The position numbers were made by a program, and so were the translations under genes. Positions 1-43,128 of a DNA stretch of 43,633 nt are shown one piece after another. The DNA comes from Caballeronia sp. (GTDB lineage Bacteria; Pseudomonadota; Gammaproteobacteria; Burkholderiales; Burkholderiaceae): assembly GCF_028292365.1 (NCBI RefSeq), contig NZ_JAQGMM010000537.1, forward strand, positions 1 to 43,633, read 5' to 3'. Positions within the stretch are counted from its first letter, which is position 1. Each line of letters begins with the position of its first letter. The notes below the pieces were generated by a model, which did no database searches, was not told where the DNA came from, and saw nothing but the letters and a program-made list of their open reading frames with translations.

Positions 1-1203
1 GAATCTCCGACTGATATCGTCTATCTCGATCGGATCGATCATAGGATTGCTTCGAATGATCCGCGACACCTCGTGTTGCCGGGCCTTGGTCATGACCCAC
101 AACAGGCGCTCGGAAACCGCGCGATCGGTCGCCGAGACAAGCATTTTGGCAAGGTCGGAGGGGTCGAAAGCGTTGACCGTGTCAAAGAGCGTGCGATCGT
201 CGATGAATTCAATGTCGGCCAGCGATTTGTAATCGTTGGTGGACCGCGGCGGCTTCTTCGAACTGGCGGGGATGCCGTTATCCTCGCGAGACAGCTTGTC
301 CAGCAGCAACTGCTTTTCGATGCCGATAAGCGCGTCGACGTTCGTCAAGCCGGCCTGTTCCAGTTCCGTCACGATCGAGATGCCAAGGCTATGGTCCGCG
401 GCCCGCTGCGCTGATTCCACGATTCGCCCAGGGTTGAAAACGACGACCTGCCGCTCGACGGTGTCGTCAGCCGTGGGAGAGGACACATCGTCGACGAAGT
501 CCCCACGCGCGGTTTCAAACGCGATAAGGTTCAACGTTTCCATACGTCTGAGCATTGCCATAATGTGCATGCGAGGATGACCGATTATGGCCTGGCAATG
601 CCTGAAGGCATCGGTGAATGAAATAGACACATTCTCCGAACTCGGATGACGCCGTGCGTCGTGGCTTTCGGCCCGCGCCATCAGACTCAGCAAATTGGCA
701 TAGGAGACGATGCCATGCAAAAGATCGGCGTTCGTGTGTGCCGGGAGGAGTTCGTCAACTCGTTTGTTCCTGCGGATCAGGCTACGCATCAAGTGGCGAA
801 GCAGGGGCGACACGCGCTCCAGTTCAACTTCGACCGACGTTGGGTCGATGACGATCAGCCGACAAAAGCTTAGGGCTCTCGCGGTTGATCCGCGCGGCTC
901 GGACCGCAACAGCGCACATTCCCCGAAGCATTCGTCTTTCCCCAGGATCGCAAGCACCACTCGCCTTTCATCGCATCTGGTGGAGATCTCGATCTTGCCT
1001 TCGGCGATGACGTAGATGCAGGCGTTTCCTGCATACCCTTCCGAGTAAACGACTTCGCCCGCTGCGACGGCCCGAAATTGTGGTGCCTTTTCTTGGTGCA
1101 ATGTATCCCCCGCTATGCCACTTATGTCGCCTGACCCAACGTTATCGATCGGGTAGCCTGATTTTTGTCGGAGACAATCGTCTTCTACAAGGGATAACGG
1201 CAT
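1..1203 (-). CDS. Cyclic-nucleotide-binding protein with FliG-like C-terminal part (3' end outside window)
   Basis: The frame is open from an ATG at 1203 to the left edge, giving 401 codons with no stop, so the C-terminus is missing. Residues about 45-150 form a cNMP-binding (Crp-like) domain: a beta-roll segment with AGNACIYVIAEGKIEIS and a phosphate-binding cassette FGECALLRSEPRGSTA with its conserved Glu and Arg. No helix-turn-helix follows, so it is not an ordinary Crp/Fnr regulator. A helical middle leads to a stretch (about residues 325-401, from YKSLADIEFIDDRTLF) whose spacing recalls the C-terminal repeats of the flagellar switch protein FliG. That resemblance is by eye and weak. A stop lies 14 codons upstream in frame, supporting the ATG; AAGGG lies about 12 bases before it. 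Likely a cytoplasmic cAMP- or c-di-GMP-type sensor. The domain call is solid; the role is unknown. Confidence 0.75.
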   Translation of the reverse strand, partial: MPLSLVEDDCLRQKSGYPIDNVGSGDISGIAGDTLHQEKAPQFRAVAAGEVVYSEGYAGNACIYVIAEGKIEISTRCDERRVVLAILGKDECFGECALLRSEPRGSTARALSFCRLIVIDPTSVEVELERVSPLLRHLMRSLIRRNKRVDELLPAHTNADLLHGIVSYANLLSLMARAESHDARRHPSSENVSISFTDAFRHCQAIIGHPRMHIMAMLRRMETLNLIAFETARGDFVDDVSSPTADDTVERQVVVFNPGRIVESAQRAADHSLGISIVTELEQAGLTNVDALIGIEKQLLLDKLSREDNGIPASSKKPPRSTNDYKSLADIEFIDDRTLFDTVNAFDPSDLAKMLVSATDRAVSERLLWVMTKARQHEVSRIIRSNPMIDPIEIDDISRRF

Positions 1204-37305: not shown

Positions 37306-40300
37306 CTACGCGGCAAGGAACGCGTTCACGGCAACCAGGTAACTCTTGAAGCCGGCATCCCGAAGTACCTCGCCGACGCGCTCGAGTTCGCGCCGCGTGG
37401 CATTGTCAGCGTGGCCTTGCAGGCAGAGGGCGAGCACACGGCCGCGCGCCGCGAATAGTTCCGCCCAAGGCAGCGGCTCGACTCGCGTATATTCCTCGAG
37501 GCCCGTCACGTAGCGCAGCGCGCCGGACGCGTCGCCGACCGAAAGCATCGCTTCGATGGCGTCGCGGTAGAACCACAAGTGATTGTGACCAACCGCGCCG
37601 AGACGCAGTAGTTCGGCACCCTTGGCCAGGAAACGCGCACGCTCGGCGTCGTCCTCGACCGCACGGCACAACGCGCCCACGGCCTTGGGAGCGCTGAACT
37701 GCATGCCGACCTCGCCACAGATCGCCAGCGCTTCATGCAGCAGGCTTACGGCGTCTTTCCGGCGACCGCAATCAAGCAGCACGCGCGCCTGCATCTCCAT
37801 GTTTTGTGCCTCGAAGCGGCGCGCTCCCAGTTGCCGGATCAGCTGCATCTCCTGCTCGAGATGGACTTGGGTCGCCTGCACGTCGCCCATTTCAAGGCAG
37901 GCAAAGACACCTAGCGTCTCGCCCAGCATCTGCGCGCGCGGCTGCCCAACGAGCGTTGCCGCACGCACTGCGGCGACTGCGTCCTCACGCGCTTGCTGAG
38001 CTTCGTTGAGGTACATCCGGCTGAAACCCTGCATCGAACGATTCGCGACCTCGATCCGGCCGAGGCCATATTCGCGACTCAACGTAACGCAACGGCTGAA
38101 GTGTTCGAAAGCCGTGCGCATCCGCCCTTGCGCGTAGGCTGCGTCGGCAAGCCCGCCAAGAGCGCGCGCCTCCGCTTCAGGAAGGCCCAGGCGCCGCGCA
38201 TACGAAAGCCCTCGCTCATGCTCGGCGCGGCAATCCTCGATCTTGCCGAGGGGGAAAAGGATGTTTCCACGCAGGTGGTGCAGGCGCGCGAGTTCCGACA
38301 CCATGTCATCGCGTTCCGCCACTCTCTGGGCCGCTTCCAGCAGGGCGAGGGCCTCAGCAAGACCTTCGTTGACCCGTAAGCCCTCGGCGAGCCCGAGCTG
38401 CGACCGGCATACGCCTGGTTCGTCCGGCGCAGCGGCCAATGCCGCCCGGTACGTGTCAAGCGACGCCGCAATATCACCGAGGTCCCGTTGCAGTTCGCCC
38501 TTGAGGCAGATGAGCGCGTGGCGATTTGTGTCCGTCTTCGCGATTTCGAGGCCTCGTTCGATCAGGCGTACCGCCGCCTCGATAAAGTAGGCCGTGCGTT
38601 GCGCGACAGCCGCGTCAAGATACGCCTGCGGGGCGCGGTTATCGTCGGCGCGATCGAGATGCTGGGCGTACAGCACGGGGTCGGTAGCCGCAAACCAGTC
38701 GGCGGCTCGCCGGTGCAACTCGCGCCGACGTGTTCGCAGCAGCGTCGAGTAGGCCCCTTCCTGAATCAATGCGTGCGCGAACAGGAGATCGTCGCCTTCC
38801 GGTACCACAAGTGCATTGGCGACCAGAGCATCGCAGACGTAGTCGGGTTCATCGATGAGCCGCCGCAACAACGCCACGTCGAAGCGCTGTCCAATCACCG
38901 CAGCCGCCTGAAATGCCTGACGGTCGCGCGGGGTCAGCCGGTCCATGCGCGCCAGCACCAGGCTTTGGATCGAGGCGGGAACAGCCTCACCACTTCCTTC
39001 TTCGGCGTTGCGCAGGAGCTGTTCGAGGAATAGCGGATTGCCGCCCGCCCGCTCGATACAAGTGAGCGCCACACGTTGGCTGGCGTCAATGAAGTCTCCC
39101 GCAAGGCTCAATGCCTCGTCTCTTCGCAACGGCCCAAGATCGATGGTGGCAAACGGCGTACCGCGACAGCGCGTTCGCCAGGCGGCGTCGAGTGGATCGC
39201 CTTCCACGCGCGACGTCATCACGAGCAGGCCTGGGCCGTTGGCAACGCCCGAGGCAAAGGCCGCGAGGTCGTCGAGCACCTGCGGGTCAGCCCAATGGAG
39301 GTCTTCGACGACAATCAGGACCGGCCCATTCCGGCACGCATTTTCAGTCAGCGTGGCGATGAGCGCCTGCTTGCCGCGTTTGCGCGCGGCGTGTGCCATC
39401 GCGTCATAGAGGGTCCTCCATTCACCGGATTGTGGCAGATCGAGGAGATCATGGAGGAACACGACCTGCTCAGGCTTGACGACGCCAGCCGAGACGACAC
39501 GCTCGACGGCGATGCCAGACTCGGCGCCACCTGAGGTGGACGACAGGCCGAGCAGGCTGCCGATGACAGCGCGCACCGGATCCTGACCTTTGCCGACCCC
39601 GAAATCCAGCACGAGGCCGCGATGGATCTCAAACCCCTGCGCCTGCGCGACGCCGCGCATCTCGTTGACAAGCCGAGTCTTGCCGATGCCCGCGTCGCCG
39701 CGAACATACACGACATGGCCTGCCGGCCCGGCAAGACATGCGCGGACAATCCCATGGAATTGCTCGAGTTCGGCCTTTCGTCCGACGAAATGACCGCGGC
39801 TGGCAGTCGATGGCTCGCTCGCCATGCTGCGCAGCCGCCATACCCGCACCGGTGTACCGATACCTTTGAAGCGCATGTCGCCGGCCGGGTCGCAGACTGC
39901 ATAGTCACCGAGCGCGCGGCGGACGCCGTCGGAAACCAGGGTTTCACCGGTCTTGGCCGCTGCCACGAGCCGCGCGGCGAGATTGACCGGATCGCCGTGC
40001 ACTGTGTAGTCCTGCGCGTCGGCACGTCCGAGCGCGCCCGCGACAACCTCACCACTGGCAATTCCCACGTGCGCCTGCAAAGGACGCGATGCCTGCGCGC
40101 CTAGCTGGGCCAGCGCGTCGTGGATATCCAGCGCGGCACGCGCCGCTCGCAGGGTATCGGAGTCGTGCGCGCGCGGAGCCCCGAACAGCGCCATAACGGC
40201 ATCGCCGATGTGCTTGTCGATCGTGCCGCCGTACGCGAGCACGATACCGTCTACAAGCGCGGTATAGCGGCCGACAATTTCGCGCAGTTCTTCCGGATCG

Positions 40301-40590
40301 AGCGACTGGGACAGCGCGGTAAAGCCGCACAGATCAGCAAACAGAATGGTGACCTGTCTGCGTTCATCCGCTTGCACGTCGACCACGGACGGCGTTGCGC
40401 AAGACCCCGCCGTGGCGAGTTCGGAAATGGACAAGAGCATGCGCTTGCGGTGGCCAAGCGAATGGACCCCGAGCTCCTTCAGATCCGCGTCGGTCAGTCG
40501 GGGCAACATCGCGAAGTCGACGTCGTTGTCGGCAAATGTGCGCGCGTATTGCTCAAGCCCCAACAGGCTCAGCCATCGTTCAATATCCAT
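37306..40590 (-). CDS. SAM-domain class IIIb adenylate cyclase with AAA-ATPase and TPR regions
   Basis: From the ATG at 40590 (MDIERWLSLLGLEQYARTFA) the protein is 1,094 residues. Order: a SAM domain (1-60); a cyclase homology domain (about 75-250); an AAA/NTPase domain from FVGRKAELEQF (about 269), with P-loop GDAGIGKT at 298-305; then a long TPR-type helical region. Catalytic residues: metal Asp D86 (FADLCGF) and D130 (HIGDAVMALFG), adenine Lys K126, Asn203 and Arg207 (VNLAAR). T196 in DYTVHGD replaces the purine-binding Asp, the class IIIb mark shared with bicarbonate-activated cyclases. It should make cAMP from ATP. The layout resembles mammalian soluble adenylate cyclase, with one cyclase domain instead of two. 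Divergent from a SulP transporter with a cyclic-nucleotide domain. Confidence 0.88.
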   Translation of the reverse strand: MDIERWLSLLGLEQYARTFADNDVDFAMLPRLTDADLKELGVHSLGHRKRMLLSISELATAGSCATPSVVDVQADERRQVTILFADLCGFTALSQSLDPEELREIVGRYTALVDGIVLAYGGTIDKHIGDAVMALFGAPRAHDSDTLRAARAALDIHDALAQLGAQASRPLQAHVGIASGEVVAGALGRADAQDYTVHGDPVNLAARLVAAAKTGETLVSDGVRRALGDYAVCDPAGDMRFKGIGTPVRVWRLRSMASEPSTASRGHFVGRKAELEQFHGIVRACLAGPAGHVVYVRGDAGIGKTRLVNEMRGVAQAQGFEIHRGLVLDFGVGKGQDPVRAVIGSLLGLSSTSGGAESGIAVERVVSAGVVKPEQVVFLHDLLDLPQSGEWRTLYDAMAHAARKRGKQALIATLTENACRNGPVLIVVEDLHWADPQVLDDLAAFASGVANGPGLLVMTSRVEGDPLDAAWRTRCRGTPFATIDLGPLRRDEALSLAGDFIDASQRVALTCIERAGGNPLFLEQLLRNAEEGSGEAVPASIQSLVLARMDRLTPRDRQAFQAAAVIGQRFDVALLRRLIDEPDYVCDALVANALVVPEGDDLLFAHALIQEGAYSTLLRTRRRELHRRAADWFAATDPVLYAQHLDRADDNRAPQAYLDAAVAQRTAYFIEAAVRLIERGLEIAKTDTNRHALICLKGELQRDLGDIAASLDTYRAALAAAPDEPGVCRSQLGLAEGLRVNEGLAEALALLEAAQRVAERDDMVSELARLHHLRGNILFPLGKIEDCRAEHERGLSYARRLGLPEAEARALGGLADAAYAQGRMRTAFEHFSRCVTLSREYGLGRIEVANRSMQGFSRMYLNEAQQAREDAVAAVRAATLVGQPRAQMLGETLGVFACLEMGDVQATQVHLEQEMQLIRQLGARRFEAQNMEMQARVLLDCGRRKDAVSLLHEALAICGEVGMQFSAPKAVGALCRAVEDDAERARFLAKGAELLRLGAVGHNHLWFYRDAIEAMLSVGDASGALRYVTGLEEYTRVEPLPWAELFAARGRVLALCLQGHADNATRRELERVGEVLRDAGFKSYLVAVNAFLAA

Positions 40591-40896
40591 GACCGTCACC
40601 GAAAGCCGTTTCCCGGAGCGGCGTTCCTCGTTGAGCCGCAACGCGGCCCGGTTCTCCTCGCTGCTCAAGACGTATCCGTCCGCCTGACCTGAAATCAGAC
40701 GAATTGACGCTGCACGATTCCCAGCATCAGAACCACACGGACTGTTCGCTGTTCCGACGTTTGCCCGTGAATAAACAGTGTAGGCGTCACGCGACGAGAT
40801 GTAAGCAATTTGACATGGCCGAAACCCGCGACGGATACTAAGTCGCTCTGCCAGCGACGCCCGAAGCACGACCACCTGCATTCGTCGGGGAGTACC
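40591..40896. promoter_or_regulatory. Divergent promoter region between cyclase and SulP genes
   Basis: A 306-bp spacer separates the two divergent starts and must hold both promoters. I see no clear Crp-type palindrome (TGTGA-N6-TCACA) in it. Confidence 0.5.
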
Positions 40897-43128
40897 GTGA
40901 AGCCAGACACCACCGGTTCAGCCGCCGACGTTCGCACCCGTTCCCGCCTCTCCGGCCTGCTCGGCGACCTGACTGGCGGCGCAGTATCGACGCTCGTCAT
41001 GCTCTGCTATGCAATGAGCCTCGGCACGATGATCTTCAGTGCGGATCTCGCCCGTTATGCCGAGCTGGGCGTGCCCACCGCGCTCGTCAGTTGCGTCGTG
41101 ACCGCGCTGGTCATCGCGCTCATGAGTTCAATGCGCCTGAACATCGCGGGGCCCGACAGCAATGCGACAGCTTTTCTCGCGGGCGTCGCGGCGGGCGTCG
41201 CCAGCAGCGTGCGAGCGGACGGCGGATCGGCGCAGACCGTCCTGTTGACCGTGCTGATGGCCATCGCGCTGTGTTCAGTGGTGACGGGTACTATCCTTTA
41301 CGCGATTGGTTCGTCGAGGCGCAGCCGCTCACTGCAGTTCCTGCCCTATCCGGTTGTAGGCGGATTCCTGGCCGGCACGGGCTACCTGTTGCTGTCGGGC
41401 GCGTTTCGCGTACTGACCGGCGAGCCGCTGCACTGGCGCACGCTGGTGTTCCTGACGCATCTGCACTGGCTCGCCTGGATGCCTGCCCTACTGGTCGGAG
41501 TACTAATCACGGTTCTGATGCGCAGCTGGAGACACGCTGCCGCGCTGCCTCTCGTGCTGGTGTTCGGCATCGCGCTTTTCTACTTCCTGCTGCACGTCGA
41601 CGGCCTGTCGATCGATGACGCGCGCAAGATGGGACTGTTACTTCCTCATGCGGGATTGCATTTGAGCCAAATTCCCGCGTTTCACCTGCCGGGACCGCTC
41701 GTGCACGGCAACGTCGATTGGGCGGCCATCGGTGCACACCTGCCGGAGACGCTCGTGGTCACGTCGGCGTCGGCAATCACGATCCTGATGAACTCGACTG
41801 CGATCGGCGCGGCGACAGGCGAGGATGTCGACCTGAATCGCGAGATGCGGGCTGCGGGCATCGCCAACCTTGCGAGCGGGATGCTGGGTGGAATGGTCGG
41901 CTATCAATCGTTCAACCGGTCGATGCTCAACTCGCGCGCGGGCGCGACAAGCCGGATGGCCGGCGTGTTCGCGTCCCTCGCGTGCCTGCTTTTGCTGGTC
42001 GTCTCGCCAGACATCGTCGCGCTGTTCCCCGTGCCGGTGCTGGTCGGACTCCAGCTCTTCATGGGACTACGCCTGTTGATCCAGTGGCTGGTCGGTGCAT
42101 ACCGGAAGCTGAACTGGTACGAATATCTCCTTGTCCCGATCATTCTCGGCGTCATCGCGCTCTATGGCGTTGTTACTGGCGTGGTGGCGGGCGTCGTTGC
42201 CGCGTGCGTGATGTTCGCGTTGCTCTATGGCCGCGTCAGTTGCGTGCGCATGGAGTTCGATGCCAGCACCCGGACATCGAACGTCGAACGCAGCATCGAG
42301 GATAGCCAACGACTCCACGAACTCGGCACGCAGGTATGCGGGACGTGCCTGCAAGGGTTCCTGTTCTTCGGCACGGCCAATTCGATCCTGCAGCGCGTGC
42401 GCGAACGGCTAGCCACGCGCGGTCCCGTGCCGGCCCGTTTTGTGGTTCTCGACTTTGCTGCCACCAGCGGGATGGACGCGTCGGTATCGGTCAGTTTCGT
42501 TAAGCTCAGACAGCTTTGTGCAACGATCGACGCGGATTTGGTATTGACGGGATTGCCGCCGCGATCGCGTGAGCTGCTTGTGAAAACCGGTACGCTCAAT
42601 CTCCGGATACATGAGTTCGCGACCTTGGATGCTGGCCTGGAATGGATCGAAGACAAGCTGCTTGCGCCGGGTGTCAATGCCCCGCCTCAGGAAGAGGACA
42701 ATTTCCGCGCAATGCTCGCGGCGCATTTCACGCCACACTCCCTGGAAAGGCTAGCTGCATGCATGGAGGTGCGCGATCTCAACGCCCGGCAGGCGCTGTT
42801 CCTTCGCGGCGAGCCGGGTGACGCCCTGTACATCATCGAGCGCGGGCGTGTCGCCGTATCGCTCCCGCTTGCGGACGGTCGGTCGGTCCGGCTGCGCTCG
42901 TTCGGGCCCGGTACGGTCGTCGGCGAAATGGCGGTGTACACGCGGAATCGGCGCAGCGCTGATGTGCTCGCCGAAGTGCCCACGCGTGTCCGGCGCCTGT
43001 CACTTGAGACGCTGCTTGCACTCGAGCAGGAGGATCCAGTAACCGCGCAGCAGTTTCATCGCTTTCTCGTCAAGACGATTGCTTCACGACTTGCGGTCGC
43101 GGATGAAGCACTGCGTGCAGCCTATTGA
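40897..43128 (+). CDS. SulP-family anion transporter with STAS and cyclic-nucleotide-binding domains
   Basis: I take the GTG at 40897 (VKPDTTGSAADVRTR), with GGGGAG 6 bases upstream, giving 743 residues. A SulP membrane domain (about 20-440) has many TM helices and blocks such as LNIAGPDSNATAFLAGV, LQFLPYPVVGGFLAGTGYLL and GMLGGMVGYQSFNRSML. A STAS domain follows (about 470-600; FVVLDFAATSGMDAS). A cyclic-nucleotide-binding domain ends the protein (about 610-725): LFLRGEPGDALYIIERGRVA and cassette VVGEMAVYTRNRRSAD with the Glu and Arg needed to hold a cyclic phosphate. SulP proteins move sulfate, bicarbonate or dicarboxylates. The ligand domain suggests gating by cAMP from the adjacent cyclase. 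Substrate unknown. Confidence 0.9.
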   Translation: MKPDTTGSAADVRTRSRLSGLLGDLTGGAVSTLVMLCYAMSLGTMIFSADLARYAELGVPTALVSCVVTALVIALMSSMRLNIAGPDSNATAFLAGVAAGVASSVRADGGSAQTVLLTVLMAIALCSVVTGTILYAIGSSRRSRSLQFLPYPVVGGFLAGTGYLLLSGAFRVLTGEPLHWRTLVFLTHLHWLAWMPALLVGVLITVLMRSWRHAAALPLVLVFGIALFYFLLHVDGLSIDDARKMGLLLPHAGLHLSQIPAFHLPGPLVHGNVDWAAIGAHLPETLVVTSASAITILMNSTAIGAATGEDVDLNREMRAAGIANLASGMLGGMVGYQSFNRSMLNSRAGATSRMAGVFASLACLLLLVVSPDIVALFPVPVLVGLQLFMGLRLLIQWLVGAYRKLNWYEYLLVPIILGVIALYGVVTGVVAGVVAACVMFALLYGRVSCVRMEFDASTRTSNVERSIEDSQRLHELGTQVCGTCLQGFLFFGTANSILQRVRERLATRGPVPARFVVLDFAATSGMDASVSVSFVKLRQLCATIDADLVLTGLPPRSRELLVKTGTLNLRIHEFATLDAGLEWIEDKLLAPGVNAPPQEEDNFRAMLAAHFTPHSLERLAACMEVRDLNARQALFLRGEPGDALYIIERGRVAVSLPLADGRSVRLRSFGPGTVVGEMAVYTRNRRSADVLAEVPTRVRRLSLETLLALEQEDPVTAQQFHRFLVKTIASRLAVADEALRAAY

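What the first reader, a model, noticed from the sequence alone, without database searches (positions are those of the whole stretch)
37306..43128. Possible self-contained cAMP circuit: sAC-like cyclase divergent from a cNMP-gated SulP transporter
Seen: a cyclase with SAM-CHD-AAA-TPR layout and a Thr (T196) in the class IIIb position, transcribed divergently from a SulP-STAS protein ending in a cyclic-nucleotide-binding domain whose Glu/Arg cassette is intact. Known: class IIIb cyclases (mammalian sAC, cyanobacterial CyaC/CyaB1) are stimulated by bicarbonate, and some SulP proteins import bicarbonate. Inferred: the transporter brings in the anion that the cyclase senses, and the cAMP made feeds back on the transporter. 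I know of no described system with both halves joined this way.
Basis: partly seen in the sequence, partly recalled or inferred. Interest (0 to 1): 0.82.

Follow-up and report, generated by a model that had tools for sequence, protein, structure and literature searches.

The report
cAMP-gated anion transporter with own cyclase
A soil bacterium carries, back to back, an enzyme that looks able to make the signal molecule cAMP and an anion transporter with a built-in cAMP-binding domain; relatives pair this transporter with several different enzymes of that kind, so the two probably form one signalling unit, although no bicarbonate link is shown.

Summary
In detail: a SAM-CHD-AAA-TPR class III cyclase (37306-40590, minus) lies divergent from a SulP-STAS-cNMP-binding transporter (40897-43128, plus), with catalytic and phosphate-cassette residues intact. 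Of 80 named loci of this transporter family, 64 have a class III cyclase nearby: 53 divergent, 10 downstream, 1 upstream; 16 have none. In one Paraburkholderia group the divergent cyclase is a 43%-identical lineage while the transporter stays orthologous. A paralogous transporter sits in an operon with a CHASE2-cyclase. In the genus, 30 of 30 genomes with the transporter have a strong cyclase hit, against 1 of 28 without; relatedness inflates this. The window's genome shows no other class III and no class I cyclase. Best reading: a dedicated cyclase-to-transporter cAMP circuit, untested biochemically. The bicarbonate half is not supported: the Thr is routine in these enzymes, the transporter lacks BicA's TM8 carboxylate, and substrate and signal are unknown. 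"Self-contained" is too strong: 11 other cNMP-binding matches exist, and 19 of 29 genus genomes with this transporter have no cyclase beside it.

The parts
37306..40590 (-). Class III nucleotide cyclase, SAM-CHD-AAA-TPR, 1094 aa from ATG 40590 (type A lineage)
   Evidence: Pfam; start from relatives; only PF00211 match found in the genome
40417..40590 (-). SAM domain of the cyclase
   Evidence: PF00536, 4.4e-17; upper end trimmed to the ATG
39856..40374 (-). Cyclase homology domain with D86, D130, K126, T196, N203, R207
   Evidence: PF00211; residues
39220..39789 (-). AAA_16 ATPase domain of the cyclase
   Evidence: PF13191, 3.5e-14
38074..38292 (-). TPR_12 repeat region of the cyclase (best stretch)
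   Evidence: PF13424, 8.8e-11, two stretches
40591..40896 (.). Divergent intergenic region, 306 bp
   Evidence: Between ATG 40590 (minus) and GTG 40897 (plus)
40810..40839 (+). Conserved sigma-70-like promoter of the SulP gene, TTGACA-N18-GATACT
   Evidence: 1 found, mean 0.1 in shuffles; conserved in the window plus 18 chosen relatives
40897..43128 (+). SulP-STAS-cNMP-binding transporter, 743 aa from GTG 40897 (SulP1)
   Evidence: Pfam; translation; orthologues
40957..42087 (+). SulP membrane domain; T295 at the TM8 carboxylate position, R341 at the SLC26 anion-site Arg position
   Evidence: PF00916; phmmer alignments to 5da0, 6ki1, 7v73; R341 invariant and T295 in at least 90% of 31 sequences
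42349..42600 (+). STAS domain
   Evidence: PF01740, 4e-10
42772..43029 (+). C-terminal cyclic-nucleotide-binding domain; cassette GEMAVY....RSADV with E677 and R686
   Evidence: PF00027, 2.2e-17; Glu and Arg-Ser-Ala in 79 of 79 named rows compared

Best explanation
The two genes are a dedicated signalling pair. The SAM-CHD-AAA-TPR cyclase (no membrane part recognised) makes a cyclic nucleotide, cAMP more likely than cGMP from its Lys/Thr substrate pair (recalled rule), in response to an internal signal read by its AAA-TPR part. The nucleotide binds the C-terminal CNB domain of the divergently encoded SulP transporter and changes anion flux post-translationally, probably through the STAS domain that lies between CNB and membrane part. 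Shown here: gene anatomy, intact residues, conservation of the divergent pair and of the SulP promoter, a different cyclase lineage at the same place in one group, and joining of related SulP-CNB proteins to CHASE2-cyclases. Inferred: catalytic activity, nucleotide binding, gating and its sign. Unknown: the transported anion and the sensed signal. The circuit need not be closed; the nucleotide may also reach other receptors.
For: Residues intact in both proteins. Divergent pair in 53 of 80 named loci and in 19 of 19 SulP1 genomes outside the genus in the family sample. Partner exchange: 4 named loci, whose SulP is nested among A-linked ones, carry a 43% identical type B cyclase at the same divergent place. 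SulP2 (47-55% identical) has a same-strand cyclase directly downstream in 13 of 14 fetched loci (of 19 such hits) and in 10 named loci, which overlap these; CHASE2 was confirmed by Pfam in L070, the others by cluster or position. More remote pairs: receiver-cyclase just upstream in G126, its genome's only PF00211 match; CHASE2-cyclase upstream in G640; CHASE2-cyclase with MBL and FecR genes near SulP-CNB on an Ensifer plasmid. Genus co-occurrence 30 of 30 against 1 of 28. Cassette Glu in 79 of 79 named rows but Asp in 18 of 52 remote homologues. No other class III and no class I cyclase found in the window's genome.
Against: 16 of 80 named loci have no cyclase nearby; 14 of them are genus SulP1 loci that keep an intact cassette. 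In the genus only 10 of 29 SulP1 genomes have it beside the cyclase. Outside the family linkage is rare: 2 of 51 fetched loci have a strong CHD in the flanks and one a weak hit 5.6 kb away, many with short flanks; with 1-38 cyclases per genome that could be chance, and of those two the G640 enzyme has Arg at the Lys and Thr columns. Divergent genes may share regulation without protein-level coupling. The cyclase beside SulP in L069/L171 has lost Lys, Thr and Asn. No structure could be predicted; nothing biochemical is known. Loci are related and the named and unnamed sets overlap, so counts are not independent.
Confidence: 0.62

Rival explanations
1. Bicarbonate feedback loop: the SulP brings in bicarbonate, the class IIIb cyclase senses it, and the cAMP made feeds back on the SulP.
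For: T196 and the likely equivalents of human sAC K95/R176 are present (K126/R207, table in a PMC12867704 passage). Cyanobacterial cyclases respond to inorganic carbon, and cAMP acts on the bicarbonate transporter SbtA through SbtB (PMC10117731 passages).
Against: The Thr is routine in these cyclases, and the linked enzymes of G126 and G640 lack it. SulP scores far below the BicA cut-off. The TM8 carboxylate is Thr. No carbonic anhydrase or carbon-fixation gene among the neighbours that were scanned with Pfam, a minority of all neighbours. Some sAC enzymes ignore bicarbonate.
Confidence: 0.1
2. The cyclase does not act on the SulP in particular; the genes are neighbours because both serve one stress or nutrient response and share the divergent regulatory region, and the CNB domain answers to a global cAMP pool made by any cyclase.
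For: 14 genus SulP1 loci among the named 80 keep the CNB without a neighbouring cyclase. Many SulP1 genomes of the genus hold several cyclases. 12 cNMP-binding matches in the window's genome.
Against: In this genome the pool could come only from this cyclase as far as class I and III enzymes were searched (other classes not searched). A different cyclase lineage at the same place and other cyclase architectures beside SulP-CNB argue for a functional need.
Confidence: 0.25
3. The CNB domain of SulP is structural or binds another ligand, as the RmlC-like domain of yeast Vsb1 might, and no cyclic nucleotide gating exists.
For: Vsb1's jelly-roll domain is essential, and the passages name no ligand for it (PMC13160679 passages). 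Remote SulP-CNB proteins often have altered cassettes.
Against: Glu and Arg-Ser-Ala are in 79 of 79 named rows. All 51 genomes given to (50 outside the family plus G126, all with SulP-CNB) have a class III cyclase; in the class sample 12 of 12 with SulP-CNB against 195 of 309 without.
Confidence: 0.1

Closest known systems
LtnT of Synechococcus elongatus (SulP nitrate transporter with a comparable C-terminal domain; Maeda 2006, seen only as cited in a passage and the reference list of PMC13160679)
   Same: SulP transporter with an extra jelly-roll/CNB-like domain; the cited title calls its transport activity latent, which suggests control.
   Different: No cyclase partner is mentioned in the passage seen; LtnT and its neighbourhood were not examined here.
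SbtA-SbtB of cyanobacteria (PMC10117731 passages)
   Same: cAMP made by a class III cyclase bears on an anion (bicarbonate) transporter through a nucleotide-binding protein.
   Different: SbtA is not SulP (recalled); the nucleotide binds a separate PII-like protein, encoded in an operon with sbtA.
Mammalian SLC26 exchangers with soluble adenylyl cyclase (titles and starts of abstracts only)
   Same: SLC26 anion exchange and sAC-type cAMP signalling appear together in sperm and epithelia.
   Different: SLC26 proteins carry no CNB domain (recalled); the link is thought to run through bicarbonate; sAC has two CHDs, this protein one.
Yeast Vsb1 (SulP with RmlC-like domain; passages)
   Same: SulP-STAS followed by a jelly-roll domain essential for activity.
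   Different: Moves cationic amino acids and lacks the anion-site Arg that the window SulP has (R341).

Membership tests
Class IIIb nucleotide cyclase | Two metal Asps, Lys/Thr substrate pair, transition-state Asn/Arg (definition recalled) | tested here: met
   D86, D130, K126, T196, N203, R207; CyaB 3r5g is among the best solved relatives
Class IIIb nucleotide cyclase | Stimulation by bicarbonate | not testable with these tools
   Needs an assay; residues compatible but not diagnostic
Soluble adenylyl cyclase (ADCY10) family | Tandem catalytic domains C1 and C2 in one chain | tested here: not met
   One Guanylate_cyc stretch only, preceded by SAM
SulP/SLC26 family | Sulfate_transp membrane domain plus STAS | tested here: met
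   PF00916 and PF01740 over their cut-offs
BicA bicarbonate transporter | NCBIfam equivalog cut-off (880 bits) | tested here: not met
   45.4 bits
BicA bicarbonate transporter | TM8 carboxylate (Asp258 in BicA, per PMC13160679 passage) | tested here: not met
   T295 aligns with Glu241 of 5da0 and with the Asp of 6ki1 (that these chains are SLC26Dg and BicA is recalled); weak alignments, no structure
DauA C4-dicarboxylate transporter | NCBIfam equivalog cut-off (614 bits) | tested here: not met
   67.5 bits
Cyclic-nucleotide-binding domain proteins (CAP/PKA type) | Phosphate-binding cassette with Glu and Arg | tested here: met
   E677, R686
Cyclic-nucleotide-binding domain proteins (CAP/PKA type) | Actual binding of cAMP or cGMP | not testable with these tools
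   Needs ITC or fluorescence binding
LtnT-like SulP-CNB transporters | SulP-STAS-CNB order in one chain | tested here: met
   cyanobacterial homologues at 31-35% on plasmids; LtnT itself was not compared

The most novel reading that the evidence does not exclude
A family of bacterial anion transporters of the SLC26/SulP fold is directly gated by a cyclic nucleotide made by a dedicated partner cyclase, a transporter counterpart of cyclic-nucleotide-gated channels. Evolution has fitted several different sensors to it: SAM-AAA-TPR, CHASE2 with FecR and secretion genes, and a response-regulator receiver. The cyclase end is swapped while the transporter end is kept.
Probability: 0.45. Interest if true: 0.8.

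Novelty: new variant of a known kind. Interest (0 to 1): 0.62.

Why it matters
If true, it gives a compact, testable case of direct second-messenger gating of an SLC26-fold transporter, a fold with medical weight (pendrin, prestin, SLC26A3), with exchange of the partner enzyme as a natural experiment. It would also give bacterial SulP-CNB proteins a working hypothesis, and an output to SAM-CHD-AAA-TPR cyclases, whose outputs are mostly unknown (recalled). None of the papers listed by my ten searches is, by title or the start of its abstract, about such a pair; several of these lists were capped and subscription papers are not held.

Tried and rejected
CRP-site idea: TGTGA-N6-TCACA with up to 3 mismatches gave 107 hits in the window, mean 123.9 expected; one hit at 40800 overlaps the -35 box but means nothing at that rate. 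sAC orthology: rejected, one CHD only. BicA or DauA identity: rejected. TOMM kinase/cyclase: best NCBIfam match of the cyclase, but 169.8 against a cut-off of 705.75, rejected. A shorter TM query against the PDB found nothing. Paper searches drew mostly unrelated work; the last counted 5,637 papers with at least 2 of 5 terms, and none of the 40 listed held SulP, so it says little.

Counting choices: 80 of 247 confirmed loci were returned by the genome-contig scan; many are the same records as unnamed-genome loci. CHDs under 60 bits were not counted. One row (L169, broken SulP) was left out of the SulP tree; one of 80 named rows had no CNB on its best ORF, so 79 were compared. 'Strong' cyclase in the genus table means at least 60 bits, a line drawn after seeing the hits; at Pfam's own cut-off the figures are 30 of 30 against 5 of 28 (G049 69 bits; G030, G042, G043, G056 23-28 bits). 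Of the 28 genomes counted as without SulP-CNB, G026 and G042 hold SulP1 fragments and G036 a 26% relative. G021's cyclase lies in two pieces on two contigs and G057's type B cyclase in two pieces. The family searches scored only 2-3 candidates a genome. Of 56 genomes outside the family with a SulP-CNB match were fetched (51 loci); 6 were not. Of 7 plasmid records, 6 were fetched. The cyclase tree used 20 of 50 linked A cyclases (49 named plus the window). Both trees are quick searches drawn with a midpoint root.

Full report
What is there. The minus-strand gene 37306-40590 encodes a 1094-residue protein with SAM, cyclase homology, AAA_16 and TPR parts. Its start is probably ATG 40590, because 17 of 18 relatives printed begin M[D/N]IxxW there. 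Six key catalytic positions are standard: D86, D130, K126, T196, N203, R207 (roles recalled). The plus-strand gene 40897-43128 encodes a 743-residue SulP-STAS-CNB protein. The 306 bp between the starts carry a TTGACA-N18-GATACT promoter reading into SulP, conserved together with the GTG start in the window plus 18 chosen relatives.

Where it is. The nearest named relatives are Caballeronia udeis (97% for SulP) and C. sordidicola (96%), so the window is most likely a Caballeronia (inference). In this 8.08 Mb draft, 98.75% complete in 681 contigs, the cyclase is the only PF00211 match and no class I cyclase was found; other cyclase classes were not searched. Twelve cNMP-binding matches exist, including another protein in the window (1-1203), so the nucleotide may have other receptors.

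Conservation of the pair. In the genus (58 genomes) an intact SulP1 of at least 70% identity is in 29 genomes. The type A cyclase (at least 69%) is in 16, all with SulP1; in 10 the two are divergent neighbours and in 6 unlinked. The other 13 SulP1 genomes all hold a type B cyclase of 41-44% identity elsewhere (G057's in two pieces). No genome without SulP1 has a type A or B match; the nearest is a partial 35% match in G049. In the 19 unlinked SulP1 loci no CHD was found in the roughly 5 kb flanks. Adding G033, which has only SulP2, 30 of 30 genomes with SulP-CNB have a class III hit of at least 60 bits against 1 of 28 without (Fisher about 1e-15); at Pfam's cut-off it is 30 of 30 against 5 of 28. 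These figures ignore relatedness and genome size, and three of the 28 hold SulP fragments or a remote relative. In the 299-genome family sample, 19 genomes outside the genus have SulP1 (one, G199, broken) and 19 of 19 have a divergent cyclase next to it, 18 type A and one (G236) type B. Record titles give the genera as Caballeronia, Paraburkholderia, Trinickia and Pararobbsia.

Named loci. Of 247 relatives found in the GTDB contigs, the best 80 were returned. 53 have the divergent cyclase, 10 a same-strand cyclase directly downstream, 1 a cyclase 3.3 kb upstream on the same strand, 16 none in the flanks of up to 6 kb. The divergent ones comprise 49 type A and 4 type B. On the SulP tree the four B-linked transporters form one group with one A-linked row (L150) and one unlinked row (L158), inside a supported mostly A-linked clade. 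Their cyclases form a clade with the ten unlinked genus B cyclases compared, apart from type A. The simplest reading is that the cyclase was exchanged beside a retained transporter. The history is not clean: L150's type A cyclase groups with the unlinked type A cyclases of the genus, and both trees are quick searches with a midpoint root.

Other pairings. The SulP2 type (47-55% identical) is, in L070, preceded by TPS exoprotein, ShlB-type and FecR genes and followed, overlapping by 4 bases, by a CHASE2-cyclase. Ten further loci hold the same cyclase cluster (c7) at the same distance, and two composite loci a same-strand cyclase there: 13 of 14 fetched, of 19 such hits. The exception is G118 (L069). 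Five loci add an MBL-fold protein (cluster c22); the one scanned matches Lactamase_B_2 (59.6 bits) and, over a short stretch, PDEase_II (27.5 bits, cut-off 23.7). On the SulP tree the SulP2 rows are not one clade: two of them (L155, L160) lie nearer SulP1. In C. humi and C. terrestris both modules lie side by side (L039/L040, L133/L139). In P. monticola (L069/L171) a SAM-CHD-AAA cyclase lies upstream, but its Lys, Thr and Asn are lost. Further off, G126 has a receiver-cyclase whose domain ends 84 bp before the SulP match, its genome's only PF00211 match. G640 has a CHASE2-cyclase upstream, with Arg at the Lys and Thr columns. An Ensifer plasmid has a CHASE2-cyclase on the other strand, with MBL and FecR genes close by. 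Against this, of 51 loci from 50 genomes outside the family (of 56 with a match) only two have a strong cyclase in the flanks and one a weak hit. Of six plasmid records fetched, two have a cyclase: a Caballeronia orthologue of the pair and the Ensifer one. Linkage outside the family is thus not shown to exceed chance.

The switch. In the named loci the cassette Glu and Arg-Ser-Ala are present in 79 of 79 rows compared, unlinked ones included. In 52 remote homologues Glu is Asp in 18 and the Arg is missing in 4. All 51 genomes given to one search have a class III cyclase. In the class sample, 12 of 12 genomes with SulP-CNB have one against 195 of 309 without (p about 0.005, relatedness and genome size ignored).

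The bicarbonate claim. The class IIIb Thr is in all type A, B and CHASE2-operon cyclases of the Burkholderiaceae pairs tested, but not in the linked enzymes of G126 (Asp), G640 (Arg) and L069 (Ala), so pairing does not depend on it. K126 and R207 correspond by spacing and symmetry (inference) to the human bicarbonate-site residues K95 and R176 (passages of PMC12867704 and PMC12250328). In a single-CHD homodimer these would also be catalytic, and in 12 of 49 named type A enzymes the Lys is Arg. PMC12867704 states (significance passage) that sAC of marine invertebrates and fish is unresponsive to bicarbonate and activated by alkaline pH. The SulP is not BicA by score, has Thr where SLC26Dg and BicA have the TM8 carboxylate, and has an Arg where prestin has SFSRS (residue roles from PMC13160679 passages). 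That looks more like an SLC26-type anion exchanger or channel than a sodium-bicarbonate symporter (inference). Nothing tested identifies the substrate.

Literature. Ten searches listed no paper that, by title or start of abstract, describes a cyclase paired with a SulP-CNB transporter; some searches listed only part of their hits. I read passages of PMC13160679, PMC10117731, PMC12867704 and PMC12250328; everything else is from listings. LtnT and SbtA-SbtB are the nearest precedents.

Verdict. A conserved cyclase and cNMP-domain SulP pair, very probably one functional unit; direct gating is likely but unproven; the bicarbonate loop is not supported. New variant of a known kind.

Noticed in passing
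L070:1-9153, L072:3-10434 and other SulP2 loci: Operon of two-partner-secretion exoprotein, ShlB-type transporter, FecR, SulP-CNB, CHASE2-cyclase and in five loci an MBL-fold protein (PDEase_II match in the one scanned): a possible envelope-sensing cAMP cassette with its own off switch.
   Followed up: partly
L231:7968-18112 and L229:44-10154: On rhizobial plasmids SulP-CNB lies near FecR and bacteriocin-type (NHLP or C39 peptidase) export genes; in Ensifer also a CHASE2-cyclase and an MBL protein. FecR plus secretion plus SulP-CNB recurs with a different secretion system.
   Followed up: partly
L069:1000-4623, L019, L021: A second SAM-CHD-AAA cyclase type (about 1200 aa) beside SulP or the pair has lost the substrate Lys, Thr and Asn while keeping the metal Asps; possibly a pseudo-cyclase sensor.
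   Followed up: partly
window 1-1203 (minus): Another cNMP-binding protein, open at the contig end, with only that domain recognised by Pfam; a second possible receptor for the nucleotide in the same contig.
   Followed up: partly
L020:2249-3691 (same record as L099) and L101: A further cyclase (DUF5939-CHD by Pfam in L020) sits downstream of SulP on the other strand in two distinct loci where the divergent partner is the type B cyclase.
   Followed up: partly
L088:3439-6761: In a 2.0 Mb family member the genome's only class III cyclase is a response-regulator cyclase directly upstream of a remote (27%) SulP-CNB.
   Followed up: partly
L230 and L227: A Kovacikia plasmid stretch holds at least two SulP-CNB genes close together; Acaryochloris has two SulP genes in tandem.
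   Followed up: no
L032 (G199) and L169: The SulP1 of Paraburkholderia saeva is interrupted (two pieces, a stop inside) while its divergent cyclase is open.
   Followed up: no
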